Below are positions 6,956 to 63,770 of a stretch of 64,000 nucleotides of DNA, piece after piece (within the stretch, counting starts at the first letter, position 1; the number at the start of each line of letters is the position of its first letter). Source of the stretch: Hydractinia symbiolongicarpus (Eukaryota > Cnidaria > Hydrozoa > Anthoathecata > Hydractiniidae); contig NC_079883.1 of NCBI RefSeq assembly GCF_029227915.1, positions 25,110,001 to 25,174,000 on the forward strand, given 5' to 3'. The notes beneath the pieces were generated by a model. The model made no database searches. It saw only the letters and a program-made list of their open reading frames with translations, and had not been told where the DNA came from. Position numbers and translations under genes: made by a program.

Positions 6956-9900
6956 CTAAACAAAGGTGTTCGATTCGATCGATTTTAGATATGAAGCTAA
7001 ATCGGCCATGCATTGCCTAGTCAGTTCTTTCTCTATACGCACTTTTTCCTCCAGTGTCTCTACTTCCGATTTTGAAATAACACTTGCTTCATTCGAATTG
7101 GCGTGACTAAAAGTATTCTGGCACGGGATAGAGCTGCCTTCATCTTCGTTGCTTAAAGACTGGCTACGTCCACGATATTTCAATTCGATTCTACTGTTGT
7201 TCTTCATGTGACGTACGCTATTCTTTAACCGCTGCGACAACACGCGGTTGTTATAAGAACTGTCCATTAAAATTTGATCTATCGAGCTCACGACCGGACG
7301 ACAACGTTCTCCCATGATGCGAGCTTCGTTGCTTTCTGTCAGTCCCATAAGTCGCGGGAAAACAAAATTTTGATAGCTCTCCGATGCGCCTTGGTCGTCC
7401 GTTGTGCTATCATCCGTGCTATTTACAGCGCACTTGATCGACGTTGTCTTTAACCCTTTCTTCTTTTTTTTACCCCTTGTCGGTGTTCCGGTTACTGCTT
7501 CAGTACTTCTCTGGAAAAATCAAATACATTATGTAAAAGTTACTGTTGGTAATAATAAACAAGTCAGGGAGCTTGGAAGAACAACTAAGAGAAACGTTTG
7601 TTATTGAACCAATTCTGAGAAAACAATGAGAAGAGAGAGAAGCAAGTTTTTTTACTAAGAAAGTTCTACGCAAATCTACCAAAAAGTTAATGGCTGCTGA
7701 TGAAAGCAACGACGCGTGGCACAATGCTTGTGATATATTTACAAAACACTTACCTCGTCAAAGACCATATCAAATAAGGACAACAGTGAAGCTGGCAAAC
7801 CAATGGCCGTCTTCTTAATGACTGCGACAATGGGTTTATTAAAATTACGAATTGTCTGAACTAAGTACCTAAAACGTAAATAAACAACTTAAAAGATACA
7901 ATAAGCTCAAATTTCATTCATTCGTGCCTACACACACATATACTCGCATGTGTAATCAATTCAGAAAGGATTTAATTGTCGAAAATCAAATATTGAGACA
8001 TGTGTAATTATAACGACTTTTTTAAAAGAAAATACATCACATTACATAGTGGCAAAAATTATTTCTACGTGTGATTGACAATTATATTGCTTGTTTCTTT
8101 TTTCCGTATATTTGTTTGGTTAATAAAAAAATATATACATAACAAAAACAAGTTAAACTCTAAGAAGACATGGTATAGTTGTTTACAGCAAACAAAGGGC
8201 ACTGCAAAAAAGTTCATAAAAAGTGCATTTTTAATGATATTTATACACAGTATATATAAACTTTTTAAGGCAGGTACACCACTGTGAAGAGGTGTTTTGG
8301 AATAAATAAATAAAACAAAATTTGACAGGAAAAAAATTGTTGTAAATAAAATTTGGTAAAATTGGTAGAATTTAATTTGATGGAGAAGACAAACAGAGTA
8401 ACATTTGGCAGATAACAAAAAAACTTTCTTAAAAAAAATGGTATCCACAATTGTAAAGTTTTCAAAATTACAATTTTTCTCACACATAGAATTGACAATG
8501 TTATCAGGCCATTCCTTGAGACGAGTGCGATCGCACGCGCACTCGCCTGCACACTCGTAAAAAGATTTACGAGTGCTTTTAATCGCACTCGTGAATTTTT
8601 CTTTTTCTAAAATATTATAAAGCGATGAAAAAGGCTATTACGCTGGTTACATAACATTCATTTCTTTGTTATTGATTTCATCGTCACAGAGAATACTGCG
8701 AGAAGAGTGCCCACTCATGCAAGATAAATATAACCAGAACATGGGAGAGGTTAGTTGTCCTGTACCTTAATACAGCTTTCGGACGAATGTTCTCATGATG
8801 TAATACCAAAGAAAAAACATGTTGAATAAAGTTTAAAAAATCTTTTTAAAAGGGGAAAGAGAAATCAAAAATGTCTAATGCCAAAAACATATAGCGAATC
8901 TGCCAACACATCATCGCGTTTAACGTTGTTTCAACCTTGCACTTGTGGTTAATACGTTTTACCATGGTTTTACAAAATTCATTTCTGTACAGCTTAAATA
9001 ACATATAACGTTTAAACGAATAACGTTTATAACGAATATTCACTTGCAAATATTCACATCGCACTTGTAAATTTTGTTTACAAGTGCGATATTTCGCACA
9101 CCATAGCACTTGAAATTAGGAATTGCAGAAAAACACACAGTTTTTATATACACTGTAAGGGCATCAATTATTTGTAAAAAATTTTGGCAAAACTAAGTTT
9201 TTGCAATATTTACCTGAAATTTACAGAAATAATTTTGCAGATAACAAAGAGTCACTAGATTTACTAGAACCAAATAGCATTTTGCATTTATAAAAAGGTT
9301 TTTTAAATGAACAACAACAAACTAAAAACCTTACCTTAGTAGGCTGATATCTTGTTCATATTTTTTTACTTCGATGGACGAGGAGTTCTTTAATAATTTA
9401 TCAAAAATACTATTTAACGCAAAAAAATCTTCTAAACCAGCGATAATAACAACATCACAATTATCATCAACAGCACTGTCTTCTAGAATAGTAATTAACT
9501 TCTCACATGTCTTTGTGTTAAAATGATCATCTGTTTTCTTACTTGTTGTATCAAACATTTTTTTGTTAAGACGTTTCAAGTAAACATGAACAAATCCGCC
9601 ATCTTTTTTTGAGACAATTTCCTTTGTTGTTTCGTAAGGATATAGTTTTAAGTGCTTTGAAGACATAACACATTGACAAAGCTCGTTTAAATCAGATGTT
9701 AGAAGCAAGTCAGAATTGCATGATATTTGCTCAATGCTTGGACAAAGAAATGTGTTTGTTGACTTAACTGGAGATAAAACATCAACACTATTTTGTTTTA
9801 AGCAATGTTCGGTTTCATGATTTAGCTGTTTGGAAAAAGAAGTTTTGAAAAAAACATCATCATCACAATCCTCAGATTCTACATCAGTGTCAGAAGTAAT

Positions 9901-11487
9901 AGAAGAATTGCAGTCAGACATCACTGTTCTTTTCTTAATACTTTGTGATAAAGTAAAACCTAACCGATTTATAATGGATTGCTCTTGATCTGAATGCTCA
10001 AAGAACAACTGTATATTTTTAAACAAAGCTGAATCATCCATGTTTTCATTTATCCAATTACTAGTACCGTTCTTAAATAACACAAGAAATTCATTAACAC
10101 CATTAAGGCATCTGTAACCCAATATAGTCTGAATGGTTTTATCAAACTGTTTACCAATAGCTTTCTTAGAAGTAACTGTTTTTTTCTTCCTTTTTTTAAT
10201 TTTTTTTAGCTGGACTTCTTTTGTGGGACTTTTACATAATTCAATTTTAGAAATACTATCACTTGGAGGCAAAAGTATTGGTAACTCCTTTACTGTTGCA
10301 CCACCATCGGTCACATTTTCTTCAATCTTGGGTAATTCTACACAGTTTTTAGTGCCGGTTATGTCACATTTATCAGCAAGTTCTTCTTCTGATGTATTAT
10401 TCACAGCACATGTTTGCAACAGTGGCCTTTCCTTACTTTGAACATAAACATCTAAGTAGTGCAATATAGGTCCTTTAGGCCTAGGTTTTCTTCCACACTT
10501 TTTCTTTACCTTACCAGACAATGTTAAATTACTTTTTACAGGTGCCAGATTTTCCCTTTTGATTTTGCGTTTCAGCTCAGGAGAAAATGATTCTGGGCGT
10601 TTTCTACAACGCTTCCTAGAAGAAGCGCAAAGATTAAACTCACTACAAGATTCTATAAGTTTTTGAAATTGACTTGTTCTTTTCCTTTTCTTGTGATGAT
10701 GTCCAACTTTATTATCACTATTAGATTCATCAAATTTACTTTCATATGTACAGTTTAAATCTTCACTTTTTAAATCCTCCAATGTTGAGTCTTCTTCACC
10801 TTTGCCTTCCTTAAATGAATCAGAAATCCCTTGACAAGTATTAATATTTTTATCAAGTACAATTTCCTCCCCAGCACTACCTAAATTATTTGTAATACTG
10901 CCATAAACTACTTCTTCTTTTATCAAAATATTGCTTTTTAAGTTCTTTACAAACTTGTCATCTGTTTCCACATCGTATTTAGTTAAATTAACACCGCCAT
11001 TTTGAAAATTACAAAGTTTGCCATCGTCAAGATCTGATACCATTCCATTGGGTACAAACGTATTCGAAACGGTAAATCCTTCTAATTTATCATTCGATCG
11101 AATGCAGTTAGAATCGATAATATCCATTCCTAACTTTCCATTTAAAATATCTAAAGCACTATCTATGATGGAACGGGCGGTGCCGTTCGAAGTTACTTCT
11201 TTAGCGCAGCTTTGAGAAACTTTTCTTGTTTTTAATTTCGACTCGCTGTTACATCTTTTATTTTTTGTATGCATTTTAATTATAGAATTATTAACTTTTT
11301 TAATGTATATTTTTTTTCCTAGGTGTGCATGATCTGATGAAGTTCTTCGACGTCTAAAAAGATTCCCTGCACTTAATCGACCGCTCGATCGTGTCTCATA
11401 AAACTTTGTGTTTTGAACAAAAGATTCCTTTTCTCGCGTTGTTTTTCCACATTCACACGAAGCAGTACGACTTTGTAACCGAGTCAT
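6956..11487 (-). CDS. CDYL-like chromatin protein: chromodomain-like segment plus degenerate crotonase fold
   Basis: Three exons on the minus strand, 11487-9335, 7868-7754 and 7510-6956, have GT-AG borders and compatible phases and give 940 aa. Residues 1-440 are low-complexity and basic, with an AT-hook-like GRKPRPKGP near 332 and several Lys/Arg clusters suited to a nuclear protein. Residues about 447-500 resemble a chromodomain (FLVLFKNGTSNWINENM). From about 616 the chain resembles the enoyl-CoA hydratase-like domain of CDYL proteins: a GFVHVYLKRLN strand, then KPIVAVIKKTAIGLPASLLSLFD across the first splice, then FPRLMGLTESNEARIMGERC. The central active-site loop between these last two blocks is replaced by a Lys/Ser/Thr-rich linker, so hydratase activity is unlikely. 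CDYL relatives act as chromatin corepressor scaffolds. Start chosen: first ATG of the long frame (11487). An unrelated chromodomain protein is possible but less likely. Confidence 0.68.
8552..8575. repeat. perfect hairpin, 10-bp arms
   Basis: CACTCGTAAA at 8552-8561 pairs with TTTACGAGTG at 8566-8575 across a 4-base loop. The flanks repeat the GAGTGCGA and TCGCACTC words, suggesting a small decayed palindromic element. Confidence 0.7.
9060..9088. repeat. perfect hairpin, 12-bp arms
   Basis: CGCACTTGTAAA at 9060-9071 pairs with TTTACAAGTGCG at 9077-9088 across a 5-base loop. The arms are one base away from the CACTCGTAAA arms at 8552, so both may come from one element family. Confidence 0.75.
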
Positions 11488-12187
11488 CTTGTAACCAATA
11501 AATCAAACAAAATTTTATAATAATTCTCTTCTCAAGGGAATAAATACTTCTTAGTTTTTACCAAAATAAAATTTATAAATTAATCTTTACAGCTTTAATT
11601 TCGCTCGAAGTGTTCATCATAACGAATCAGCCATTTTGAATAACAGAGGAAAACCAAATCGACTCCAGTTCAGCCATTGTTCTCCCACAGCATTTTAGGG
11701 GGATGAACGCATTATTTAATCTATCTAAACTCTGATAATTTTTTTTTAAATAACAATTTTGTTTAAGTTAGTTGAAGCAAATAAATTTTTTAGTATTTTT
11801 GGTTTTAAATTTGTTTAGTTTAATCAAAATTTCGTATTATCGTGGATTTTACTACAGTTCTACCCCCTGACGGTAGAATTATGTTTAAACGTTAGCATGT
11901 GGAACTGCCGCAAAGATCACAATGGAGCACGAGCTAACAACAATACATTTATTTAAAAAGACAGATAAAAAAGCAACAAAAAATTTAAATGTACGTAAAC
12001 ACGAAAGTATCCCCACAGACATTATTTTTAGTACGTTATAGAAAGAGACTTGACGGCGGCATTATAGTTGTTGTTATTATTGTTGTAATTGCCCACAGTC
12101 TTACCACATGTTTTTTTAGTCATATTTTAAGCCCGCCAACTATTCGTACCATGTGAAGCTTTTTAATTAAATTTTAGTCAGTCGATG

Positions 12188-21586: not shown

Positions 21587-21658
21587 GAGACCCAGCGTAA
21601 TTTTTCCTACCACCGGGAAATCGGAGTAGTTAAGGTGGGAAAAATTACGCTGGGTCTC
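21587..21658. repeat. inverted repeat with about 21-bp arms
   Basis: GAGACCCAGCGTAATTTTTC at 21587 is matched by its exact complement ending at 21658, with a loop of about 28 bases. A diverged relative of the left arm occurs at 31317-31365, so it is a dispersed foldback element. Confidence 0.8.
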
Positions 21659-22600: not shown

Positions 22601-23104
22601 TTAAAAAAATTCTAAATTAATACATCGATTAAACATGCAGAACATGCTGCGTTTCCTTCCTTCACTGTGTTCCTCTTCAAGTTTCCAAAAATCTTTAGAC
22701 AGATTAAAATAGTTTCGATCTAAAATAAAAATCTTACAGCTACCATTTTTATTACGTTGGTAGAACTTTTTACAACACTTGTAATCTCGAACCCCGCAAA
22801 ACTCGAAAAGTTTAACATCGTCTCCAACACTCTTGCAAATGGCATTTCCGCGCGAATAATTTCGGTTGTTGGCGCCAATGCATTGTGGATTGTCAAAAGA
22901 GTATGCACATTTCATCAAGGGCGTCTTTATGGTAGACGTGTTAATGTAACCATGGTGACAGTAGGTGATTTTAAGACTTCCTTTATTATCCTTGTAACCG
23001 TATATGTGTCCGTTTGCGTCGAAACATTTTGATTTTCGTGATCGATAGTTGTGAGCACAAATATATCCAGTGAACACGATCAGACAGAAAAGTATGCCTT
23101 TCAT
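22601..23104 (-). CDS. secreted cysteine-rich precursor with C-terminal ring peptide, paralogue 1
   Basis: Single exon, 167 aa, not recognised as any named family. Residues 1-17 form a signal peptide. The mature body has nine cysteines (27, 49, 66, 75, 90, 103, 110, 111, 123) with family motifs CFDANGHIYGY, ITYCHHGY, AICKSVGDDVKLFEFC and a CC pair. Near the end GRKRS (149-153) is a likely prohormone-convertase site. After it comes a 14-residue tail with cysteines 156 and 161 (CMFNRC), ending LEFF. The same plan recurs at 24185 and 26674, all on the minus strand. If cut after Arg152 the tail would be released as a small cyclic peptide; it could instead stay disulfide-linked to the body. An NTS glycosylation site lies at 55. 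Role (peptide hormone, immune effector, venom component) unknown. Confidence 0.8.
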   Translation of the reverse strand: MKGILFCLIVFTGYICAHNYRSRKSKCFDANGHIYGYKDNKGSLKITYCHHGYINTSTIKTPLMKCAYSFDNPQCIGANNRNYSRGNAICKSVGDDVKLFEFCGVRDYKCCKKFYQRNKNGSCKIFILDRNYFNLSKDFWKLEEEHSEGRKRSMFCMFNRCINLEFF

Positions 23105-24184
23105 GGTTGGTTTGCTTCTTCAAGAAATCTATGAACCTTTTTTGTTGTCGCAGTTAATGAAAAATATGAAAAATAAATGGCGGGATCACCAATTTTTATG
23201 GGAAATGTTGTAAAATAAATCCCCGGAAATTGCTTTTTGGTAAACAAAAAAAGTTCAAAGCACTATCCTTGATGCACAAAGTTGTTCCTTAACAAGGCAA
23301 ATATTGTTCTTGTTTTATTTTTATTATGTCGACTAAAAATATTTCTAGTGTATTTTATTTCAATTTAAATCACATAGAATTTAATTGCCTTGTTTTTATT
23401 GATAAAGTATTTAAAGTTAAACGCCTACTTTGGAGTAACGAAAAATCGTTGGGTTGAAAGAAACTTGGGAAAATGTTTAGAAAAACAGGGGGAGGGGGCG
23501 GGGGCGGAGGGAAGGGGAGGGGAGGGGAGGGGGACAGAGGGGGTTAGAAAATATTCAAACATTAATAAAGACTAGAGTCTCCTAGAGTATACAAAAATTT
23601 CTTTCAAAACGCCCTGGAGACGAGGTTGTTTCAAGCAGTATGGATGAACAAATATACGACAAAAAAAAACTTATTTTATTTTCTTAAACCCCAAAAAACA
23701 ATTTGATGTCATAAGGTTATGCTGTGAGAAAAGAACATAGATTATGCAATAAAAGGGATGTAACAAAGTCCATTTAAGGAGGGTCGAGTTAATATTTATA
23801 AAATCGCCTTTTGTTGACCTGTTACACAAGAAAACTTTTTGCGTAGCATGGGTTCTTTGCGAAGAATATAGAAATACAATATATAACTGCGGTTCTTTCC
23901 CGAAGTTATAGAATATAATATTTATTGGGTTGTTGATAAATAAAACACAGGATAGTTCAAAATAATTTTTACTGTATATCTTTTTCAGCAAAAAAAAATT
24001 CTCATCAAATAAGTTTGTTTTTGAAAATGAAAAAAAAACAACAACAACAACAACAAAAATAAATATATTGCTTCAGCGCAATAAGCAAAAGTTATCCAGT
24101 ATTATTCAAAGTATTACGTTATCATTTTCTACTTGCTTTATACTGCGATTCTGAATTATAAAGTATATAGTTTCTTAAAACATC
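23105..24184. other. spacer between secreted paralogues 1 and 2
   Basis: Should contain the promoter of paralogue 1 near its right-hand start. It holds a strongly G-rich stretch at 23488-23545, a MITE-end fragment (CTGGAGACGAGGTTG, near 23612) and a CAA microsatellite near 24030-24055. No gene is seen; the minus-strand frame at 23671-23991 lacks any conserved feature. Confidence 0.5.
23488..23545 (+). other. G-run cluster, potential G-quadruplex
   Basis: About 58 bp with repeated runs of four to six G on the plus strand separated by one to three bases, in otherwise AT-rich DNA. It satisfies the usual G4 pattern several times over. It lies about 385 bp upstream of paralogue 1, on the template strand for that gene. 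Confidence 0.75.
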
Positions 24185-24670
24185 TCAAAAAAACTCTACA
24201 TCAGTGCATGAACCAAACATACAAATCACACTTCGTTTCCTTCGCTTTCTTCGTTTTTTCCTTTTATCATCATTATCAAACACATTATCATTTAACACAA
24301 ACAAACTGCAGCTACCAGATTGTCCGCTCGTATAAAAGTTTCGACAGCAGGAAGTTCTTAATCCACAAATTTCAAACAACGTAACGTTGTCTCCAACAGT
24401 TTTGCAAATTCCATAACCTGGCGAATAATACTTTCCGTTCTTAGCTAAACATTGCGTAGATCCACTCTGTTCTTCACAATACGCAGTTGGGTTTTCCACT
24501 TCAGATTTAGCAACGTATCCATTATGGCAATATTTTATCATGAAATCTTCTGAATTGAGTTCGTACTCATAGACATAGCCATTGGCATCGTTGCACGTGT
24601 CGTCGTCATCGCTTTTTAGACTGTAGATATAGAGTGAAATGTATATGGCGCATAAATATAATAACTTCAT
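24185..24670 (-). CDS. secreted cysteine-rich precursor with C-terminal ring peptide, paralogue 2
   Basis: Single exon, 161 aa. Signal peptide about 1-17, then an acidic stretch (DDDD). Body cysteines are at 26, 48, 65, 74, 89, 102, 108, 109 and 121, the first eight exactly where paralogue 3 has them. Motifs: CNDANGYVYEY, YCHNGYV, GICKTVGDNVTLFEIC. Residues 136-146 are an unbroken basic run (KRKKRRKRRKR), followed by Ser and a tail with cysteines 150 and 155 (CMFGSC) ending VEFF. This is the strongest cleavage signal of the three and matches the furin rule. The tail is the best-conserved part of the C-terminus, which argues that it is the product. An NVT site is present. Function unknown; call as a precursor is inference. 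Confidence 0.82.
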   Translation of the reverse strand: MKLLYLCAIYISLYIYSLKSDDDDTCNDANGYVYEYELNSEDFMIKYCHNGYVAKSEVENPTAYCEEQSGSTQCLAKNGKYYSPGYGICKTVGDNVTLFEICGLRTSCCRNFYTSGQSGSCSLFVLNDNVFDNDDKRKKRRKRRKRSVICMFGSCTDVEFF

Positions 24671-24987
24671 GATTACTGCTATTGAATGAACGTCTGATGT
24701 TACTAAATTGTAAAATTAAATGTATTTACTATTTATATATTTCTATTAGATGATAGGCAGTTATTTCCTTTCTTTAATGGTAGCTGTTCTTTTACTGTTT
24801 TTTTCGCGAACACCTGTTGCCCATAGCGTCCACTAAAGTTGTGAACTTGTTCTAAAGAGCGTGTAAGAAAGAGCAAAAGGGTTTAGAAGAAGTTCGCTGG
24901 TTTTTTTTTCAAAAAAAATTATTCTCGCGAAATAGTTGTACTTGTTAACCGCGTAAAACTTAGTTCCGCAAATATTTATACATATCT

Positions 24988-25109
24988 GATGCTTGCAACC
25001 TCGTCCCCAGGATCTTCTGACTCCTGAGCCGTTACAACCCAGCGGCCGACAATTTCGACGCTCTTATTCAAAAAAGCAAAACGACCTGGGAACAAGGTTG
25101 TGATGCTTG
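24988..25109. mobile_element. hAT-like MITE with 8-bp target duplication
   Basis: The 106-bp element (24996-25101) begins CAACCTCGTCCCCAGG and ends with the imperfect complement CCTGGGAACAAGGTTG. It is flanked on both sides by GATGCTTG, an exact 8-bp direct repeat. Eight-base duplications are typical of hAT transposons. Related ends occur at 21971, 23612, 25408 and 62776. Confidence 0.75.
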
Positions 25110-25407
25110 TCGGTTGAAGAATGAATTTATTTCTTTGCGACAATACAATTTTGGTTGTAATGGTAACAATGATTCTTAACACGTGCGCAGGATTATTAAC
25201 CTTTTGTTTGTTTTAATTTAGTTTATCGGCTAACAAGGTGTACAAGCGAGATATTACCGACGGATTTAAAACACTATGGAAATAATGATTTGCATTTTAT
25301 AAGCGCAGGTTCTCTTACTATGGTACCCATACTCTCATGTATTCCTACAACTTTCCGTGACGCGCGAAAAACGCCTTTCATTTCATATGTTGTACATATG
25401 TAAATAG

Positions 25408-25497
25408 CTAGCCTCGTCCCCAAGGTCTTTTGCCTTTTTGACATCTAGGCCGGCGACGGCTTTGACATAGGCAACAGACCCTGGGGACGAGGATGGT
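25408..25497. mobile_element. second hAT-like MITE of the same family
   Basis: The ends GCCTCGTCCCCAAGGTCTTT and the complement of GACCCTGGGGACGAGGATGG form an inverted repeat of roughly 25 bp. The flanking TAAATAGC and TAAATGGC may be an 8-bp duplication with one change. Confidence 0.65.
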
Positions 25498-26104
25498 AAA
25501 TGGCTTTACATAACTCTAGAATTACTGCTGTTTAGAATAGCGTGGAATTTGAACATTTTTTTTATTAATTCAAACTTTAACATTTTTTTGATATGTTGAC
25601 TTTATATTCGCGTTTTCTTTCTGTAACTTCAAGTTACGCCTATCATCTATTCTGTTGCACAGTATAAATTTTCTGGGAGGATATTTTTTTACGCCTTTTT
25701 TTCTTTCAAACATTAAGCACGTGAGTTCTGCCACAGCTACAGTTTGCTGCAGATGTTATGAAGATAGCAACACAACAATCTATTGTTTGATAATTCATTT
25801 TCACCGCCAATTAAAAATCAGGTAATTCCGTCAAATTTTCTTAACCACCAGATTTTTGCCCTCTTTTCTTCCCGCCAAAATTTCTTCCCTTAAGGTGTGT
25901 TCGTAGATATGAAGTTTTGCCACTTCTGTCCATTTTTGAAAATTTAACGGTAAAGAACAACTCCACACTTCAATATTAAGTGAGAGTTCTAATACATAAT
26001 TAAGGAACAAAACCTCACTCGTCCGAAATCTTTTTGTCCGATTAGATAGATGACAAAGAAAACATGTTAATATACGACTTGAATTTTCTCTACTAACGAA
26101 AAAA

Positions 26105-26195
26105 CGAGTAGTCATATGGTAGAGCGTTCGCTTCCAGCGACAAATATCGTGGGCTTAACCTCCGGCTAAGTCATGTCAGAGATCATAAAGTGTGA
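26105..26195 (+). mobile_element. 5'-truncated tRNA-derived SINE
   Basis: ATATGGTAGAGCGTTCGCTT resembles the D-arm and anticodon region of a tRNA, followed by a mutated B box (GGGCTTAACCTCC) and a non-tRNA tail. The first part of the tRNA fold is missing, so it is not a tRNA gene. Confidence 0.5.
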
Positions 26196-26673
26196 ATAAA
26201 TCCTTTTGCACAATAAGAGAAATACTGAAGCACATAAAAAAAACTATGTTGTATTTTTGAAGATTTCGTTAAAATTTTAGGAGAAAATGAAGGTACTCAT
26301 AAACAAGTCTTTCCTTTTCTTGATGTCAAATAATCTATATTTAGAATTACAGTGATTACTTAAATAAAATTAATTTGTGAGGTTTTTAAGGCATTTTATG
26401 AGCAGTGGCTAGGCTGGCACGGCTTCTGTAGCTTAAATGGCAACTTAAAATTGTAGGACCTAGGAACTAAGATCCCTTTGAAGGGCCCTGATTGATAATG
26501 TGTTCTGCACAGGCTATCCTGTGCAAATAACCGCGATAAGAATTTTATTATTTTATGCATAATTTAGGCGCATTCTTTCTTTTACACATAAAACTCTGCT
26601 GATTTTCTCTCATTTCTATTTAAACGCGGGAAATTTAAAACAAATGAAGTACGTATAGTTCCTTTCGAACAGT

Positions 26674-27141
26674 TTAAAAATATTCTATTTCGTCGCACTC
26701 TCCGTACATGCAATATATACTTCTTTGATTTCTTTCATCCGTTCCACTTGGCTTGAAAAATCTTTCCTCCATAACCACGATTTTGCAGCAGCTTTCTGAA
26801 TTCTCCGAAGTACCGCAACACGCATCCTCGAAAGCACAAAACCGAAAAATAGCAACTCTTTTATCTTTGCTTTTGCAAATTCCGTTTCCTGCTGGATACT
26901 CAAGCTGATTAGCGGCTGGACAAGTCGTTTTGTTTTCCATTTTGTAGCACATGACGCCAGGATTTTGAATTTGAGATGTATTGACATATCCGTTATGACA
27001 ATACGTGATAGAGAAAAGTTCTTCTGTTAAGTTGTATTGATAAATATGACCGTTTCGGTCGGTACAACTGATGTTGTTAATCGCAGCTGATAACGCAACA
27101 TAACCGGTGAAGTAAATGATAAACACGATGAGTTGTTTCAT
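26674..27141 (-). CDS. secreted cysteine-rich precursor with C-terminal ring peptide, paralogue 3
   Basis: Single exon, 155 aa. Signal peptide about 1-20. Body cysteines at 26, 48, 65, 74, 89, 102, 108 and 109, then 118 and 119, one more than in the other two copies. Motifs: CTDRNGHIYQYNL, ITYCHNGYVNTS, GICKSKDKRVAIFRFC. The cleavage site is reduced to RNQRS (137-141), which still fits R-x-x-R. The tail has cysteines 144 and 149 (CMYGEC) and ends IEYF. Four N-glycosylation sites (NIS, NLT, NTS, NKT) are visible. Body and tail have diverged in charge from the other copies (acidic ring residues), consistent with different targets. Not recognised as a named family. Confidence 0.8.
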   Translation of the reverse strand: MKQLIVFIIYFTGYVALSAAINNISCTDRNGHIYQYNLTEELFSITYCHNGYVNTSQIQNPGVMCYKMENKTTCPAANQLEYPAGNGICKSKDKRVAIFRFCAFEDACCGTSENSESCCKIVVMEERFFKPSGTDERNQRSIYCMYGECDEIEYF

Positions 27142-31900: not shown

Positions 31901-34900
31901 GTCCCCATTTTCCCGTATGCCATGTGATTTATCTTATTTTGCTCTTTGCTTGAGATTCTTTATATGAAAAATGCCTTTTATTAATATTATATTGGTGTAG
32001 AAGTTTTGTTGTTATAATTTTGTTATAAACTAAACGAAAGTCTGTGAGCAGTATAGTTTATTGAAATGGATGAATTCGTTCATTTACTAAATTATGACTT
32101 CGAATAATCCATCTGGAGTTTTGTTGGTATTGCGAAAACACAAACTTTCCATTAATGTTTGCATTAGCCTGGTACCACAACTTTCTTTATTTTTTGAACT
32201 TGAAGTTTCATTGTGACGCGTGTTGCTTATAACCCCCAGACCTCTGACGCAAATTGACAGGCAAAATAATGTAGGAAGTAAGCCGTGTACCAGTCTATTC
32301 TAAACTTTATTTTCAGGTAGAGGTATATTTTGATCTCGAAATAAAAAAAAGCTTGCATGTAGTTTACATTAGGAATATATATCAGTGAAAAGATGCTAGT
32401 AGCAACAGTACAAATGTTTTTAACCATAAAATTTGTTCACTTAAGGTCTGTTTCTTTTGCCTGTGGATTTTTTTGATTTTCCCGCGCATGCGCAAGAATC
32501 ACGTAAATTACTCATTGGCCTCAAATGAAAGACTAGTTGTCTACGATTTTTGAAACAGATATTGTTGCCTCATATTTAACAGAATATCTCGGAACATTTT
32601 CTAGAAAAAAATAGATCAGCATGTTCAGATATACCAAAGCGATCTGTAGAAAGATCCCCAAATCAATTATTACCGAAGGATTGCGCATGGAAGTAGAAGC
32701 AACTCCTTTTGACTATAAAAAAGCTATGCAACAACACAGCGCATACGTAAGTGCATTAAAAGACGCAGGTGTGCAAGTGACAGAGTTGGAAGCCGACGAA
32801 ACCACCCCGGATTGCGTCTTTGTAGAGGATACTGCAGTTGTAGTGGGTGAAACTGTCCTAATAACGAGACCTGGTGCTCCATCAAGAGAACCAGAATCTG
32901 CTGTCATAAAAAGATATTTTGAAGAAAACGAAATCAAAGATCTCTTTGAAATGAAAGCGCCTGCATCACTGGACGGTGGCGATGTCTTGTTCACTGGACA
33001 CGAATTTTTTGTTGGTTTAAGTAAACGGACAAACCAAGAAGGAGTGGATATGTTGCAATCTACTTTTTCAAAATACCCTGTCCATGGAATTCCATTATCT
33101 GGACACTTGCATTTGAAATCGTTCTTGTCCATGATTGACGATGACGTCATGGTGTGCGGCAGTAGTCAGCATGCCTCAGATGCTTTGAGGCAGGTCATGG
33201 AAAAAACCAAGCAGGTATACTCTGTGTTGCGTGTACCTGATGACGCAGCAGGAAATGCTGTCATAGTTAATGGTGTTCTCTTGTGTCGAATAAAAGAGGA
33301 ATTCCCTGATTCATACAAAGTTTTTGAGAAATTAACAATCCGAAAAGTTGGATTACATGGATCCGAGTTGAGCAAATTGGACGGTGCGTTGACATGCTGC
33401 TCCATACTGTACTAGTCTATCTCGGTCGATACCGTACTTTTTGGCAACCGAAATACATTTAATTTCTTCTTCTGATAATCCATTGCAATGCACGAATGTT
33501 TGTTTTCACGAGGGTAAAAATAAAATTAAAATAAATGAAATAATAACTCATTTTGATTATATCCTTTTTTTATAAATAAAGCAACTCCATTTTTGTTACT
33601 TTATAGTCGCTAAGGTTTAAGGTTACCTTTCTACGTGATTTTTAATCTCGTTTTACCAGTCCAATATTTCTATGATTGACTGCAAAATTTAAAATCTGCG
33701 TATTTTTCATTATTTAACTTGCTATATAAACTTATAGGTAACTTAACTTTTGTACTGGTACTTAAGTTGCTAAGCAAATGCTTTAAACTTAAATCAAGGT
33801 AGCTTAGCAGAAAGTGAAAAAATCCAAAATTATCAAAAAACCCACTAAAATTTACAGGTGTAGACAATATTTGATTTAATGTCAAATTTTTACCTGAATA
33901 TCCACAATCATGAACAAATTATAAAGTACTCCTGCTTTTAGTTGTTTTAGAGTTGCGCATTTTGAATTTGTCTTACTTGTTCAATTGTCAATGCTCACTT
34001 GTCAATATTTATTTGTCAATGTTCACTTGTCAATGTTCACAGCTGACTTAGGTTAGGATTTACGGTTATTCGGTTTAATACGTACTCCTGATACATACTA
34101 ATTATTGCTGACGTCAATTCTTTCCGAATTGCGGATTTTTATAGGCCCTGACGTGATAATTCATTGTGCGGGTACGTTACAGAATACCACTAGTACATTT
34201 TAAACGCTCTTTACACCTGCTTATGTGTGCGCGAAAGTAGACTGTAAACTGCAAAATAGTTGAATTTCCGCCCCCAAAGGCGTAGGAAATTCTTTAAAAC
34301 CATCGTTTTTTTCTTTCGGAGCATTTTTTGAGAAAAAATCGACCCTGGGATTTCACGTTCCTCCGTCACAGATTTAAACTTTGTACCCAAGCTCCCTAAC
34401 TACTGGGAAGTCATCTAAATGACGTTTTAGGCCAAAATTGGTATTTGTTTTCGACAAAATTTGGCACAGTTAACAAAAAAAGTATGCTGAACATAATGGT
34501 GATATAGTAATTTTTGTTTGCGTTTGTTGTAAGATATAATGTCACTTGTGTGCTTCATGCACCAAACCTCTTTGAATGTTTGGTGCATAATACAACGAAT
34601 TAGCAGGTTGTCATCAAATATTTTGGTAGCGAGCGGAAATTCTTAGAGCCCCCAGGGCTTCTTGTTACCATTTAATTCTCTTGGCCATGTTTAAAAAAAT
34701 GACAAAAAAACTGCCTTTGTTTTGTTAATTTCCTCACGATTGCATAATAAATAATTATAGAGTTTAAAATCAGAAAAAGAAGTTCCATAAATTGGTATAA
34801 ACTTGTATCTACTGTTTGTACTACAGTTTCTTAAAGAACGAATACAGTGGTGTATAAACAGATCTAGCGGTAAAAAAATCACGCTATTTAATATTTATAA

Positions 34901-37900
34901 CGGCGAATTCAGTGATGCAGAAAATTAGGGAAAACGTTAAAATTGATACTGGCGCGTGTTTATAGTTGATTAAATGTCATGCCAGTGTTTTTTAAGTATT
35001 AAGACCAATTTTCTGCATTTTAAAGCTACACATGAAAAAGGCTAGACTAACTAGACTAATAAAAGCATATTTTGGATTATAAGCATTTGTGTGTCAATGG
35101 TGGAATTTTTCTCGCGATAGACACAAGTAATAACTTTAGGAAATATTTTTGACAGTTCATCGACAAGGCAAAATGCCCTGTGAACGAGGTTGACGAAGTA
35201 CAGTATTAATTGGATAAGACGATTACATTATATTTATCTCTTTTTAAATTTTATCTTTATTCACTGTGGTCTTCCATTAAGCACGTATTTATAGAGCCTG
35301 TAACTCGTCCTCCAGTGCAGTTTTCTCCAGCCAACTCAGTTGGGGAGGGCCAATACAGTGAAAAAATGTTTTTCATGAATCCAAAAGAACTCAAACTTCT
35401 AATAATTAATTCTCTTTAGTTACTACCTTGAGGGAATAAATTTGCGTAAGAAGAAGAATAATCTTTGCGTGTTGGCAAGTCCTAATATAAAAAAACATAA
35501 AATAAAGACTGATGAGTTAAAATTCACGTACTTTTTATATGTATTTCTAGGGAAATTAGCAGAGATAAAAATTCTGAATTTCACGAATTGCGAATTTTTC
35601 AATAATTCTCGAGGGAAAAAATTCCCGAAAATTTATTTCAGCGAAAATTTTTTTCCTAAAGGTACTTTTGGGACATTTCGCGTTAAATTATTTCTGCAAA
35701 ATTTTACGAATTTGAGTCAAAGATTTTTCCAAAATTCATTTTTTACATAACTCTTAAAAGCAACAGTCACGAGTTAAAAAAAGAGAGAAAAACAAAACAA
35801 AAAAACAAAGCAACACAACAACAACAACAAACAACAACAAACAACAACAAACAACAACAAACAAGACAAAACAGAACGTGCGTTGAAATACTCTTAAACT
35901 GTTTTAAATTTTCGTGAAACATTACAACTTAATTTTGTCACACAAAAAAATTCCCTTAAGCTATCTTTCCCACATTCATATTTAAAAACTGTTAGCCAAA
36001 GTGTTAAAAATATAAAAAAGATGTCGGCGCTCGTGAAGACTACACGCGGTAATGGTGTGACCATTCCAACTAAATGTTTATTCGCGTTTAGCGCTCTCAT
36101 TAAGATCATAAACACCGTTAACACCGGCCGTGTGAACAAGGCTTTAACACCAGAGTGCAAAATATGATAAGGTTATGGTTGGTTGAATTTGTTATGTTAT
36201 GCTTTGAAATAGTTGATTTTCTGGACTGATCTTATTTCTTTTTCTAATGAGCTTTCGTGCTGAAAAGCACAAGAAGCGTAACCATGAAATACTGCTAACT
36301 ATTTGTTTCAGCTTTAATGCATAATCAATGCACGCTTAACAAACGTTATTCAAAATTAAATTATGAGATTTAAAATTTAATTATGTATTGTTAAAAAAGA
36401 TAATAAGTCAATAAAAATATTTCCGTAAAGCATCAACAATAAAAGAACCATAAGAAAGAAACTTCTTGAGAGATACGTAAGTACAGCCATTCATAAAGAT
36501 GTTTCGCTACACAAAAGCCGTTTGCAGAAAAATACCCAAATCCATTGTGTCTGGAGGTCTACGAATGCAGAAAGAAAAAAAAGCATTGGATCATAACCTA
36601 GCCTTGAAGCAGCAACAGTCATACATCAATGCACTAACTAGTTTAGGTGTTAAGGTAACCGTATTAGAAGCTGATGAAGCAACACCAGATTGCGTTTTTG
36701 TTGAGGATACAGCCGTCGTGGTTGGTGAAACTGTTGTTATCACAAACTCAAGCATGCCTACAAGAAAATTAGAAATAATACCAATCAAGGAACACTTTGC
36801 TAAATATGAGAAAAACAAGAAGATTATACAAATGGAAAGTCCTGCTCAATTGGATGGAGGTGATGTTATATTTACAGGCCATGAATTTTTTGTTGGTCAG
36901 AGCAAGCGAACAAATGAATATGGATTGGAAACGTTACAGAAGGCATTTCCACAATATCCTGTGCATGGCATAAAAGTCACTCACACATTGCATCTGAAAA
37001 CAATAATGTCTGTAGTTGAAGAAGACATGCTAACGTGTGGAACTGAACCTCACGTTTCGGATGCTCTCGAAGAAGTCCTCACAAAAGCGACAAGAAAATA
37101 CAGTGTGTTAAGAGTACCCGATGAAGCAGCAGGAAATGTGGTACTGGTTAACGGTGCCATATTATGTCGGTCACAACAAGATTATCCTGACTCTTACAGA
37201 GAGTTTGAGAAACTGGCAATAAAAAAGATCGATCTTGATGGAACCGAGCTGGAAAAGGTTGATGGCTCTTTCACATGCTGCTCTTTGCTTTACAATTAAG
37301 CTTGATTGTATTATACTTACTCACTTGGAATAAAATTTCCGCATAAAAACGTAGCATCAGGGCTGGGATTGTTTTCGTAAATTGTTGCGTGGCATATATG
37401 AAACTTATAGGTAACCTGCTCTGTTTGTATAATTATAATTTGCTTTTTTAATATAGCAAAAGGAGAGCGTTTATTTTTAATGATAAATTGTTACAATTAA
37501 TAGTTTATTTAGAAAAAAGTAGAACAAAATATATTTTACCTCTACTGATGCGTTTTTTATTGTGTAGTTAAGGAATTTTTAACATTTCGGAAGTTGTGTT
37601 GGGAGGTGTGGACATGTGATGCACATGTGATGTACACATGTGATGCACACATGTGATGTACGAAATATGTCCGGAGTGCATAATACAAGCGAACATAACT
37701 GTATTGTCGTAACATTAACAAACTATAAACGATTACCTTTAGGGCATTAATTTTCGCGAGTTTTTTCAATTTCGCGAAAGTTAATTTCTGCGAAAATTAT
37801 TGGAAAAATTTCTATTCGGAGTTTCTTTGATGAACCCCTGCTATTTCTTAATTTTTTAAAGCAAAACCTAAAGTTGATGAAATGTGAAATCTTCAAGCTC

Positions 37901-40900
37901 CTGGGGTTCTTGTGCGATAATTGACATCTCCTTGAAACCGAGGTTGTCGGATTATGCACACACCAATTTAATAACGCTGAATATGAAAATATCAAAAAAA
38001 ATTTTGTTTTAAAAGACGATTTACACTTATTTCTTTCTTTTGGTTTACACTACATTAAAAATAAAAAATGTTCGGTGGTAAAGTCTTCGGCAAAAATACT
38101 TATTTTGTTTAAACCAAATATATTTAAACCATAAGAGGGAATTACAGCTAGAAATAGGTGTTTTTTTCAAAATAAATAAATAAATAAATAAATAAAGTAA
38201 AAGCACGAATGATTATTTCAAAAAATAAGGCTTTTATCCATCATTAAGATTAACATCATAAAACGTCATAAAACATAAACGAGGTGTTTCATTATTTTAT
38301 TAACATTATCTCATTATCAGATAATCGACTTTTAATTGTTTATTTATTATTTTGATTATTATAATTTGATAAATATCACATTGCGGGATATTTTAATTTT
38401 TATTGGTAACATTACTTGTTTACTTCTACTGACATCATATTTGCAGTTGTACTTTAATAACATTATCTCATTATCAGATAATCGACTTTTAATTGTTTAT
38501 TTATTATTTTGATTATTATAATTTGATAAATATCACATTGCGGGATATTTTAATTTTTACTGGTAACATTACTTGTTTACTTCTACTGACATCATATTTG
38601 CAGTTATAAAATCTTGCTAGTGTAACTTCATTTCCACTGTCTTTCAAATTTGATTACAGCACTTTGTGTCATTACTACTAATACTAGCTGAATACCCGTG
38701 GGGGAATCCACTGAATCTCTCATTAAACCGATGTAAGGGATACCAAACAAAAACATACAACACAGTAATATGAATTTTTAAAAGTCACAATTTGTATTAT
38801 TTAAGTTTATAACCACTAGAACAAAACGTCCAAAAAAATAAATATGTGCAGCAATAAAAAAATAACAATAAAAGAGAAAAAAACCCTGGGATTGAAGTTG
38901 CTCACAATCTGCGTTATATTTGTACCCGCTGAAACAGAACGCTTAAAAATATAAGCATGTCCAGCAACAAATAAAAATGCAAAAAGTTTAACAAAATCGA
39001 AGGTGGCTAACAAATCTGTTAAAACTATATACTTGCTTTGCCATACCCGAAATATAACAGGGAAAATGGTATACCAGACATTAAAAAAATCGATAAGTCA
39101 CACAAATAAGGTTATTGCAAAGTTTCCACAACGTACAGATTCTAATGCATCATACCAAATTAGCTATTTAGTCTATTGCATATAGCAACCTTCCCAATGC
39201 GCAAACGTGCAGTGCATGATAACAATGCAGTGTTTTCGAATTAAAGAATCGAATATTATTTTAAACGGTAACGTAACAGATGTAAACATTGATTTAACTT
39301 TGTTTACCTTAAGGTTTATTATAACGACATCAACCACTTCGTAGTGTTAAAAACAGCAACAACGAAAAAATACTTTCTACATTTTATATAAACTCTTCTC
39401 TATTATATACACGCTGTATTTTATAAGAATAGTGTTTTTTTTTTTTCGTTTCGGCCTTCATGTTCTTAGCTTTCCCTGGTGTACTTGCCCATTGTTTTGG
39501 AGAAAAAAAAGGTTCAAATTTTTATATTAAAAGAAACAACCAAGCTTAGACATCTTCTTAGGATATTCTGACCCATTGTTTCGAGTATATTCTTACAAAA
39601 AATGTTAAATATGTTCAGGCTAAAGACAAAACATATTTAACTTCATATTAAAGGGAAAGTTTAGCTGGAAGCGTGTAAACGGCTTAAAAACGTCGCTTTA
39701 CATTTTAGATTCTTATAAAAATTGTGTCAAAAGAAAACGTATTTAAGCTCAAGACGCAACAAGGAACTAAAAATTTAAAGGAAAAGCTGAGCTCTGAAAG
39801 TTAAAACGGTTAAAAAAAAACGTTACACACCTAAACTTATCTCTTTACCAGATAAACTAAACAACACACCTGCCTTTTTTTGGCTTTCTCAGTTAGTCTC
39901 TGGATAAAAGACCAATCAGTTTTTTACTTCGATTATTAAACTTCGCTTCATCCCAAAGAAAACAAAATGAAAATGTATAGCTAGCTACAATTGTCTGATA
40001 CATTTCCAATCAGTTCTCTTTTTGACGTTATATTATCGTACGTTTTTCTTCTTTATAACAAATATTTCTAGGAACAACATAAACTTTTTTTATTCTCGCT
40101 CGACATCAACAGTCGCTCTACAATGACAACAGTTTTGTTCTTTACTTCTTAGATTCGAATCATCATTCGAATTCGATAGTTTTTTTAAAAGAAAGCAACT
40201 TCGGTCCCAGAACACAAAAAAGATAGAAGAAGCAAATAAGCTTTTTTAATCTAACCTCGTGATGAGTAAACCTTGTTTGAAATAACTTTTTTCAGGATTA
40301 CTTTGAAAAAGAGACAACTTTCTTCGCTTCGGTTTTCATTTTTCAGTTAATAAACTTTGTTTCCGTGAGATACGGCGCGCACTTGGTGAACCGGGGGTAA
40401 AATTTAATTATTCTATCTTAAACGACCAGCGGGGCTTTTACAACAAAATAACAAATAAACCATTTGAAATTAAAATAAAAATTAGTTTTAATGAGTAAGG
40501 AAAAAGAGTTTTATTTAAAAAAAAAAATAAGAAAAGAGAATTAAATATTTATATAGTAACCCCCTGATTTGCGTTTTCTTTAACTTGGTAAATTTTAGCG
40601 TAACGCCACGTCGTAAGAAAATGACCTGTGATTTGTGTGACGTGGCCTCACCGTGCGCACACACACACAAGGCGTATTAATATATAGATTTATTTTTCGC
40701 TCAGATTCCATTTCGCCGAAACTTCATCTCCACGGCCATTAAAGCCTAAAAACACTGCTTGTTTTTGAAAAGATTATTTTTTTAGTCAAAGCACCACTTA
40801 AGCCGCTATTTTTACTGACATTTCATTACCACTGACATTTCATTGTCACTGACATTTCATTACCACTGACATTTCATTGTCACTGACATTTCATTACCAC

Positions 40901-43900
40901 TGACAATTCATTACCACTGACATTTCATTACCACTGACATTTCATTACCACTGACATTTCATTACCACTGACATTTCATTACCACTGACATTTCATTACC
41001 ACTAACATTTCATTACCACTGACATTTCATTGTCACTGACATTTCATTACCACTGACATTTCATTGTCACTGACATTTCATTACCACTGATAATCCATTG
41101 TCACTGATAATCCATTGTCACTGACATTTCATTACCACTGACATTTCATTACCACTGACATTTCATTTCACTGGCATTTCATTACCACTGACATTTCATT
41201 ACCACTGACATTTCATTACCACTGACATTTCATAACCACTGACATTTCATTACCACTGACATTTCATTGCCACTGACATTTCATTGCCACTGATATTTCA
41301 TTACCACTGACATTTCATTACCACTGACATTTCATTGTCACTGACATTTCATTACCACTGACATTTCATTGTCACTGACATTTCATTACCACTGACATTT
41401 CATTGTCACTGACATTTCATTACCACTGACATTTCATTACCACTGACATTTCATTACCACTGACATTTCATTACCACTGACATTTCATTACCACTGACAT
41501 TTCATTACCACTGACATTTCATTACCACTGACATTTCATTACCACTGACATTTCATTTCACTGGCATTTCATTACCACTGACATTTCATTACCACTGACA
41601 TTTCATTACCACTGACATTTCATTACCACTGACATTTCATAACCACTGACATTTCATTACCACTGACATTTCATTGCCACTGATATTTCATTACCACTGA
41701 CATTTCATTACCACTGACATTTCATTGTCACTGACATTTCATTACCACTGACATTTCATTGTCACTGACATTTCATTACCACTGACATTTCATTGTCACT
41801 GACATTTCATTGTCACTGACATTTCATTACCACTGACATTTCATTACCACTGACATTTCATTACCACTGACATTTCATTACCACTGACATTTCATTACCA
41901 CTGACATTTCATTACCACTGACATTTCATTACCACTGACATTTCATTACCACTGACATTTCATTACCACTGACATTTCATTACCACTGACATTTCATTAC
42001 CACTGACATTTCATTACCACTGACATTTCATTACCACTGACATTTCATTACCACTGACATTTCATTACCACTGACATTTCATTGTCACTGACATTTCATT
42101 ACCACTGACATTTCATTACCACTGACATTTCATTACCACTGACATTTCATTGTCACTGACATTTCATTACCACTGACATTTCATTACCACTGACATTTCA
42201 TTACCACTGACATTTCATTACCACTGACATTCTATTTTCATTGACATTTCATTGTCACTGACATTTCATTACCACTGACATTTCATTGCCACTGACATTT
42301 CATTACCACTGACATTTCATTGTCACTGACATTTCATTACCACTGACATTTCATTACCACTGACATTTCATTACCACTGACATTTCATTACCACTGACAT
42401 TTCATTACCACTGACATTCTATTTTCATTGACATTTCATTACCACTGACATTTCATTACCACTGATAATCCATTGTCACTGACATTTCATTACCACTGAC
42501 ATTTCATTAACACTGACATTTCATTACCACTGACATTTCATTACCACTGACATTTCATTACCACTGACATTTCATTACCACTGACATTTCATTACCACTG
42601 ACATTTCATAACCACTGACATTTCATTACCACTGACATTTCATTGCCACTGACATTTCATTACCACTGACATTTCATTACCACTGACATTTCATTACCAC
42701 TGACATTTCATTACCACTGACATTTCATTACCACTGACATTTCATTACCACTGACATTCTATTTTTATTGACATTTCATTGTCACTGACATTTCATTACC
42801 ACTGACATTTCATTGCCACTGACATTTCATTACCACTGACATTTCATTGTCACTGACATTTCATTACCACTGACATTTCATTGCCACTGACATTTCATTA
42901 CCACTGACATTTCATTGTCACTGACATTTCATTACCACTGACATTTCATTACCACTGACATTTCATTACCACTGACATTTCATTACCACTGACATTTCAT
43001 TACCACTGACATTTCATTACCACTGACATTTCATTGGCACTGACATTTCATTGGCACTGACATTTCATTGTCACTGACATTTCATTACCACTGACATTTC
43101 ATTGGCACTGACATTTCATTGTCACTGACATTTCATTACCACTGATATTTCATTACCACTGACATTTCATTACCACTGACATTTCATTACCACTGACATT
43201 TCATTACCACTGACATTTCATTGGCACTGACATTTCATTGTCACTGACATTTCATTACCACTGACATTTCATTGTCACTGACATTTCATTACCACTTTGT
43301 GACATTTTGTCTCGACTGGTGTTTCATCCAAATATTATTCCATCTCTACTGACATACTATCTCCACTCATTTTTTCTGAAATTTAATTTTAACAGTTTTT
43401 AACCATAGTTGACATTGCATGTCTACTGACCTCCATACCAACAGCCATTTCATTATCACTGGTTTTGCATTACATTTCATTACAGTTCTATTGACAAAAT
43501 CGTCTTGACCGAAACTTTCTACTATTTCTATTAAGTTATTCCTTTATTCCTTTTTTACTGAATACTTTCATTTCAATTATTATTGAAATATTTGTTCTGA
43601 CACACTATTTTCTGCCACCAGAATTCCGCTTCTACTGGCATTTCACATCTCAATCTCAAGTGGAACTTCATTTTTATCGACACTCCATATATCCACTTAC
43701 ATTCAATTTTTACTAATATTCAATCTCCACTGAAAATTCTTTACGACCAACATTTTATTTCTAATATACCATCTCTACATACCATTTCATTTTCACGGAA
43801 TTTTTTCATTTGTTCTGATATACCATATCTTTGGATTTTCATTTTCACCCATATTCTATTTATAATGATATTTCATACCACTTACATTCTATTTTCATTG

Positions 43901-63033: not shown

Positions 63034-63770
63034 CTATGGCTCACTTCTCTTCTCAATAAAAACACTTCTCTTCTTAGTCAAAACACTTCTCTTCTGTATA
63101 AAACACTTCTCTTCTGTATAAAAACACTTCTTTTCTGTATAAAAAACTTCTCTTATATATCTTTTGACTGCACAAATTAAGGCGATATAATAATCAATAG
63201 CTTCATGAGCTGTATCTGGCTTAAGTTTGGAGAAACCCTCCATTGGAAGAACTGTTTCCGCAAATTCAATAAATTCAGGCTCATTATCGTGATCTGGTAC
63301 AGATAGTTCGCTAAACTCTTCTTTTTCATTAAGATCTAAAGTTTTAAAAAGACTTGCAACCATATAATTCTGGAACAAAGTACAATGTATCAGGACTTCC
63401 ACGGGGACCAGTAGCACCTTTGCTTGGTGCTAACAGATGTTGATTCCAACGAATCGCAAATTCATTAAGGTTCTTCCTGATCAAATCCATCAAGCAGCAG
63501 CGTACACATTCAGCAATGAGTGCATCACTAGCATCTAAAAATCCTAAGTCTGCAAGTTCTCTAAAAAATATCCTCCACCAACTTGGTCTGTCTTTTGAAA
63601 GTTGTGACCAAAAAGATTCGATTCTTTGATTAGCTGTTGATGTACCAACAATAAAACTGCCAGTGCCAGCATATTCGTCATTATACTGACATCTTAATGC
63701 AATCTCAACATCTTCCATAATACAGTTTTCAGTACCATCATCAGACCTTATTCTTGTTGAAAAAATATGT
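63034..63770 (-). pseudogene. frameshifted DDE integrase-core remnant
   Basis: From about 63770 leftward the minus strand encodes RSDDGTENCIM (the second catalytic Asp block), then GTSTANQRIESFWSQL (catalytic Glu), SWWRIFFRELADLG, AECVRCCLMDLI and WNQHLL. This is the integrase-core family found in animal transposons. In the run of Ts near 63355 the frame ends (GCKSF then stop) and continues one base off as KTLDLNEKEEFSEL, on to AIDYYIALICAVKRYI. The first catalytic Asp is missing from this end. The second frame runs on into the repeat array at 63040-63165. Two breaks make it a dead copy unless the T run is an assembly error. Confidence 0.75.
63040..63165. repeat. array of CACTTCTCTTCT units, left end
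   Basis: Six or seven copies of an AACACTTCTCTTCTGTATAA-type unit of 18-20 bp. The complement of this array lies at 63890-64000, on the other side of the integrase remnant. Confidence 0.85.

What the first reader, a model, noticed from the sequence alone, without database searches (positions are those of the whole stretch)
22601..27141. Three tandem secreted precursors, each ending in a cleavable six-residue disulfide-ring peptide
Three single-exon paralogues share a signal peptide, an eight-to-ten-cysteine body, a basic cleavage site (GRKRS, RKRRKRS or RNQRS) and a 14-residue tail with the ring CMFNRC, CMFGSC or CMYGEC, ending x-E-F/Y-F. The tail keeps C-M-F/Y-x-x-C and the final aromatic pair while the linker before it varies freely in length and charge. 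That is the pattern expected of a peptide precursor whose product is the tail. The ring size equals that of vasopressin/oxytocin (C-x4-C), but here the ring lies at the C-terminus after a cysteine-rich body, the reverse order, so shared origin is unlikely. I do not recognise the family. Possible roles: hormone or neuropeptide, immune effector, venom component.
Basis: partly seen in the sequence, partly recalled or inferred. Interest (0 to 1): 0.88.

Follow-up and report, generated by a model that had tools for sequence, protein, structure and literature searches.

The report
Cyclic tail peptides with cysteine-rich carriers
Three neighbouring genes encode related proteins, matching no family in the libraries searched, that are predicted to be secreted and likely cut to free a small ring-shaped tail peptide, which would make them an unusual kind of animal peptide-messenger precursor.

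Summary
Three single-ORF paralogues lie on the minus strand (22601-23104, 24185-24670, 26674-27141). Each has a hydrophobic N-terminus, a body with nine (two genes) or ten (third) cysteines, a variable linker, an Arg|Ser junction after basic residues, and a 15-residue tail S-x-x-C-M-F/Y-x-x-C-x-x-[LVI]-E-F/Y-F that ends the protein without an amidation glycine. No Pfam or NCBIfam model passed its cut-off and no PDB sequence matched. One near-orthologue per gene (90-93%) was found; tails differ at 1 of 45 positions. The body is constrained too (28 of 102 columns invariant; tail 6 of 15; linker 2 of 25), so 'the tail is the product and the rest is filler' is too simple. Best reading: a proprotein convertase would free a non-amidated cyclic peptide from a folded cysteine-rich partner, like vasopressin-neurophysin in reverse order, without detectable homology. 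Nine conserved body cysteines, an odd number, suggest a disulfide-linked dimer in two of the three. Cleavage, ring closure, receptor and expression are inferred. Structure models were too poor to use, the genome-wide search for more copies did not complete, and the phylum was not verified.

The parts
22601..23104 (-). precursor gene p1, 167 aa, single ORF, TAA stop; 9 body Cys; linker ...EEEHSEGRKR; tail SMFCMFNRCINLEFF
   Evidence: near-orthologue P0003, 154 of 167 identical
22604..22648 (-). p1 tail, 15 residues after Arg152, ring CMFNRC
   Evidence: direct reading; 0 of 15 differences to P0003
24185..24670 (-). precursor gene p2, 161 aa, single ORF, TGA stop; 9 body Cys; linker ...RKKRRKRRKR; tail SVICMFGSCTDVEFF; TATA-like site 67-69 bases before ATG
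   Evidence: near-orthologue P0001 at 93% identity
24188..24232 (-). p2 tail, 15 residues after Arg146, ring CMFGSC
   Evidence: direct reading; 1 of 15 differences to P0001
26674..27141 (-). precursor gene p3, 155 aa, single ORF, TAA stop; 10 body Cys; linker ...GTDERNQR; tail SIYCMYGECDEIEYF
   Evidence: near-orthologue P0002, partial (59% of the query), 90% identity
26677..26721 (-). p3 tail, 15 residues after Arg140, ring CMYGEC
   Evidence: direct reading; 0 of 15 differences to P0002

Best explanation
Each gene encodes a protein that is predicted to be secreted and likely to be cut once by a proprotein convertase at Arg|Ser, which would free a 15-residue, non-amidated peptide predicted to close as a C-x4-C ring, while the conserved nine- or ten-cysteine body would fold on its own and likely serve as its carrier or co-secreted partner. 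Shown by sequence: the ORFs, their paralogy, the conserved cysteines, the basic/Arg-Ser junction, the fixed tail length and end, the lack of an amidation glycine, and constraint on both body and tail around a variable linker. Inferred: secretion, cleavage, ring closure, the carrier role and signalling through a receptor. In p1 and p2 the body has an odd number of cysteines, so if the tail ring closes on itself one body cysteine is left over, most simply for a disulfide-linked dimer; the extra cysteine of p3 could remove that need.
For: The only strongly hydrophobic stretch is at the N-terminus (maximum 15-residue Kyte-Doolittle mean 1.75-2.33 there, at most 1.23 after residue 30). Arg and Ser at the junction are invariant in the five sequences and the six. 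Paralogue dN is tail 0.29-0.47, body 0.53-0.67, linker 0.78-1.07, with dS saturated for the whole ORF; the tail is only 15 codons, so this ranking is rough. Tails of near-orthologue pairs differ at 1 of 45 positions. Linker lengths are 29, 25 and 21 while tail length stays 15. In Nematostella, mass spectrometry showed N-terminal peptide cuts at dibasic KR-x, RR-x and KK-x, and R-x-x-R cuts in some cases on the C-terminal side (PMC11087051, passages), so both junction types here are of kinds used in a cnidarian. A non-amidated cnidarian neuropeptide with activity has been reported (PMC12440616, passages). Cysteine-rich neurophysin, made in one precursor with its peptide and with a chaperone-like role, is established (PMC5818035, passages).
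Against: The tail is not significantly more conserved than the body (p = 0.33 and 0.37). The p1 site lacks the P4 Arg of furin and the p3 site is not dibasic. One peptide copy per precursor and no amidation are unlike the cnidarian ring-peptide precursors described in the passages I saw. P0001 as predicted runs 20 residues past the tail (W then DVLQ...); this could be a TGA read as Trp by the gene caller, as the window's p2 ends in TGA and the next codons read DVL, but I could not see its DNA. No expression, peptide or receptor evidence. The models do not show where the tail sits (mean pLDDT 45 and 48).
Confidence: 0.5

Rival explanations
1. Two-chain protein: the linker is likely cut but the tail stays docked on, or disulfide-bonded to, the body, and the pair is the active product.
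For: Body and tail are both constrained and the linker least; odd body Cys in p1 and p2 leaves one Cys that could hold a tail Cys.
Against: In p1 and p2 the total of 11 Cys stays odd in any pairing, so tethering does not resolve the odd Cys; a C-x4-C spacing suits a self-closed ring; p3 has an even total.
Confidence: 0.2
2. The body is the product (for instance a matrix, immune or growth-factor-like protein, perhaps a dimer) and the tail is a C-terminal propeptide or inhibitor removed at maturation.
For: The body holds 28 of 102 invariant columns, including nine Cys in all three.
Against: Propeptides often drift (recalled), whereas the tail has the lowest dN of the four regions in all three paralogue pairs and 1 of 45 changes between near-orthologues.
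Confidence: 0.17
3. No cut: the basic stretch is a surface patch and the tail is a structural hairpin of one folded protein.
For: The three basic sites differ in type; the first AlphaFold2 model draws the tail as two strands, though at block pLDDT 27-36.
Against: Invariant Arg-Ser at a fixed distance from the end although the linker before it varies in length and charge.
Confidence: 0.1
4. Role rather than processing: the freed cyclic tail would be a venom or antimicrobial peptide, not a hormone or neuropeptide.
For: Tandem divergent paralogues and tail charges that differ (0, -2, -4) are compatible with effector diversification.
Against: Tails are neutral to acidic, unlike typical cationic antimicrobial peptides (recalled); between near-orthologues the tail hardly changes, with no sign of fast evolution.
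Confidence: 0.2

Closest known systems
Vasopressin/oxytocin-neurophysin precursors
   Same: One C-x4-C ring peptide per precursor, cut at a basic site (recalled), made with a cysteine-rich domain that has a chaperone-like role (PMC5818035 passages).
   Different: Order reversed (ring last), no amidation glycine, 9-10 instead of 14 body Cys (14 recalled), no Pfam or PDB sequence match.
Urotensin II / somatostatin / allatostatin-C type precursors
   Same: Disulfide-ring peptide after a basic site, at the end of the precursor (end position recalled); urotensin II also has a six-residue ring, CFWKYC (PMC3493602 passages), and a non-amidated end (recalled).
   Different: Their precursor bodies are not cysteine-rich (recalled); no W-K core here; no Pfam match.
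Cubozoan FRamide cyclic peptides, CTGQMCWFRamide (PMC6402141 passages)
   Same: Likely C-x4-C ring in a cnidarian; Met inside the ring.
   Different: Seven similar copies in the Tripedalia precursor, ring at the N-terminus of the peptide, amidated.
Clytia cyclic GPPCRWGCamide (PMC8638164 passages)
   Same: Probable cystine-ring peptide in a hydrozoan.
   Different: Five-residue ring, amidated, in a precursor with several RWGamide-type peptides.
Hydra LW-peptides (PMC12440616 passages)
   Same: Non-amidated peptides from a precursor with no homologues in other organisms by its authors' account.
   Different: Multiple putative peptides per precursor; whether they hold cysteine was not in the passages seen.

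Membership tests
Vasopressin/oxytocin-neurophysin | Ring peptide directly after the signal peptide (recalled) | tested here: not met
   Ring is the last module in all three
Vasopressin/oxytocin-neurophysin | C-terminal amidation glycine (recalled) | tested here: not met
   Tails end E-F/Y-F then stop
Vasopressin/oxytocin-neurophysin | Neurophysin domain | tested here: not met
   No neurophysin model in Pfam scans at E up to 10 (filters drop most above 0.1); no neurophysin chain in PDB sequence searches at E up to 10 with p2 and with the three-sequence profile. That both libraries hold neurophysin is recalled.
Urotensin II / somatostatin / allatostatin-C | Cyclic peptide at the C-terminus of the precursor after a basic site | tested here: met
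   Direct reading; cleavage and ring closure untested
Urotensin II / somatostatin / allatostatin-C | Family core residues (e.g. W-K in the ring) | tested here: not met
   Rings are CMFNRC, CMFGSC, CMYGEC; no Pfam match
Classical cnidarian amidated neuropeptide precursor | Several peptide copies with Gly-basic amidation sites | tested here: not met
   One tail per precursor and no Gly before the stop
Glycoprotein hormone / cystine-knot subunits | Cystine-knot sequence signature | tested here: not met
   11 Cys after the presumed signal in p1 and p2, as in GPH subunits (PMC6402141), but no Pfam cystine-knot match and no CxGxC (motif recalled; direct reading)
Secreted peptide precursor (general kind) | Signal peptide, no later membrane span | tested here: met
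   Hydropathy only; no signal-peptide program on hand
Secreted peptide precursor (general kind) | Peptide actually released and oxidised | not testable with these tools
   Needs peptidomics

The most novel reading that the evidence does not exclude
A mirror-image neurophysin: an animal lineage, possibly non-bilaterian, independently evolved a cysteine-rich carrier that is made in one chain with a C-x4-C ring hormone, but in reversed order and with a non-amidated peptide, the carrier working as a disulfide-linked dimer in two of three paralogues.
Probability: 0.2. Interest if true: 0.78.

Novelty: new variant of a known kind. Interest (0 to 1): 0.52.

Why it matters
If true, it adds a single-copy, non-amidated, ring-shaped peptide with its own conserved cysteine-rich partner to animal peptide signalling. 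Screens for C-terminal cleavage sites and amidation residues (as PMC12440616, passages, describes earlier ones) could miss it, since the tail ends at the stop codon with neither. It would also give a test of whether the carrier-plus-ring design of vasopressin precursors can arise more than once.

Tried and rejected
This tool needs shared five-residue words, so absence elsewhere does not show that the family is lineage-restricted. Viral contigs: 30 stretches matched a pattern, none a relative.

Weak Pfam/NCBIfam hits were taken as chance, all below curated cut-offs: NusG_II, CUB_CDCP1_2, AmiS_UreI (E 0.06-0.15), PRK09514.1 in p3 and its near-orthologue P0002 (E 0.048 and 0.023), and CUB_CDCP1_2, SoFic-like_C, bCoV_S1_N, STALD, BING4CT (E 0.004-0.27). 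PDB sequence search with p2: four hits at E 0.8-1.6, taken as chance; profile: none.

Papers: the motifs CMFNRC, CMFGSC, CMYGEC, KRSVICMF, RSMFCMF and RSIYCMY are in 0 papers of the library. Searches showed no such family in the titles and abstract starts listed (15 of 35, 15 of 52, 8 of 8, 6 of 6, 10 of 14, 12 of 30 and 8 of 138 papers seen). Eight papers were opened, all as passages only; PMC9545775 gave nothing on such a precursor in the 12 passages shown.
Full report
What is there. Three ORFs on the minus strand (p1 22601-23104, p2 24185-24670, p3 26674-27141) encode 167, 161 and 155 residues. They are paralogues of one another (tblastn E 8e-28 to 8e-35; no other match in the window below E 1), p1 and p3 at 40% and 36% identity to p2. 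Each has an in-frame stop 18 to 48 bases upstream of its ATG. p2 has a TATA-like site 67-69 bases before its ATG, p3 one at 139 bases, p1 none within 400 bases. A single exon is therefore plausible, though unproven. A random frame of this base composition would stay open for 155 codons with a probability of about 1e-5. For the whole ORF, synonymous change is saturated (pS 0.80-0.83) and replacement change is not (pN 0.39-0.44), so the ORFs are maintained as proteins.

Anatomy. The only strongly hydrophobic stretch is at the N-terminus, read as a signal peptide; no signal-peptide program was on hand. The body after it carries nine cysteines at the same alignment columns in all three, and p3 has a tenth next to the last. 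A linker of 29, 25 or 21 residues follows (my boundaries), ending in GRKR, RRKR or RNQR. Then come exactly 15 residues: S-x-x-C-M-[FY]-x-x-C-x-x-[LVI]-E-[FY]-F and the stop. There is no glycine before the stop, so no amidation would be expected. The tail pattern is found three times in the window, never in 30 mononucleotide shuffles in its strict form, and once in all 30 in a relaxed form; a looser form without the Arg also hit two unrelated frames.

Where the constraint lies. Invariant columns between the three paralogues: signal 4 of 19, body 28 of 102, linker 2 of 25, tail 6 of 15. Tail against body is not different (p = 0.37), tail against linker is (p = 0.036), body against linker is borderline (p = 0.063). 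Paralogue dN: tail 0.29-0.47, body 0.53-0.67, linker 0.78-1.07. Near-orthologues P0003, P0001 and P0002 (92, 93 and 90% identity; P0002 covers only 92 residues of p3) differ from p1, p2 and p3 at 1 of 45 tail positions, 19 of 264 body, 8 of 75 linker and 6 of 36 signal positions; tail against body p = 0.33. 'Orthologue' is inferred from this closeness. So there are two conserved modules around a variable, cleavable linker.

Cysteine count. Body 9 plus tail 2 in p1 and p2; body 10 plus tail 2 in p3. An odd core cannot pair fully within one chain. If the tail ring closes on itself, p1 and p2 keep one free body cysteine, most simply used in a dimer; a tail tethered to the body would still leave an odd one. 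This is inference, with a plain gel test.

What it works like. The nearest design is vasopressin/oxytocin with neurophysin: a ring peptide and a cysteine-rich, chaperone-like domain in one chain (PMC5818035, passages). Here the order is reversed, the peptide is not amidated, and neither Pfam nor PDB sequence searches see neurophysin. A ring peptide after a basic site is also the plan of urotensin II and somatostatin/allatostatin-C (PMC3493602; PMC7536072; passages; their place at the precursor's end is recalled), but their core residues are absent here. Known cnidarian ring peptides, CTGQMCWFRamide (PMC6402141) and GPPCRWGCamide (PMC8638164), are amidated and come from precursors with several peptides. 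A non-amidated cnidarian neuropeptide with activity was reported in 2025 as the first to its authors' knowledge (PMC12440616). So it resembles these in design and is a member of none by the features tested.

Limits. No expression data. P0001 as predicted continues 20 residues past the tail, possibly a stop codon read as Trp by the gene caller, which I could not check. The structure models are too poor to place the tail, and fold comparisons of the second model are uninformative. The search of the window's own genome for further copies did not complete in 22 tries, so family size is unknown.

Verdict. A real, well-delimited, unrecognised family of predicted secreted precursors. Release of a cyclic tail peptide from a cysteine-rich partner is the best reading at about even odds.

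Noticed in passing
window 32615-33415 and 36481-37299 (+): Two tandem single-ORF DDAH/arginine-deiminase-like genes (PF19420 E 7e-11 and 4e-16), a second small tandem family close to the precursor cluster.
   Followed up: partly
window 40814-43296 and 47553-49124: Satellite of about 146 copies of a 17-base unit ACTGACATTTCATTACC and a second, more decayed related array.
   Followed up: no
window 9331-11502 (-): Stop-to-stop ORF of 723 residues with no Pfam match at E up to 0.01.
   Followed up: no
window 63344-63769 (-): Transposon-type integrase core fragment (PF24764 E 1e-12).
   Followed up: no
window 55578-55967 (-): ORF with a MOSC N-terminal domain (PF03476 E 3e-8), perhaps an exon of a larger gene.
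   Followed up: no
window 21587-21658: 25-base inverted repeat (GAGACCCAGCG..., 96% complementary, 22 bases between the arms) about 1 kb from the p1 stop, perhaps a small transposable element.
   Followed up: no
P0001, residues 162-181: The predicted near-orthologue of p2 runs 20 residues past the tail, starting with Trp where p2 has TGA; both Trp of P0001 lie in that extension, which suggests that TGA was read as Trp.
   Followed up: partly
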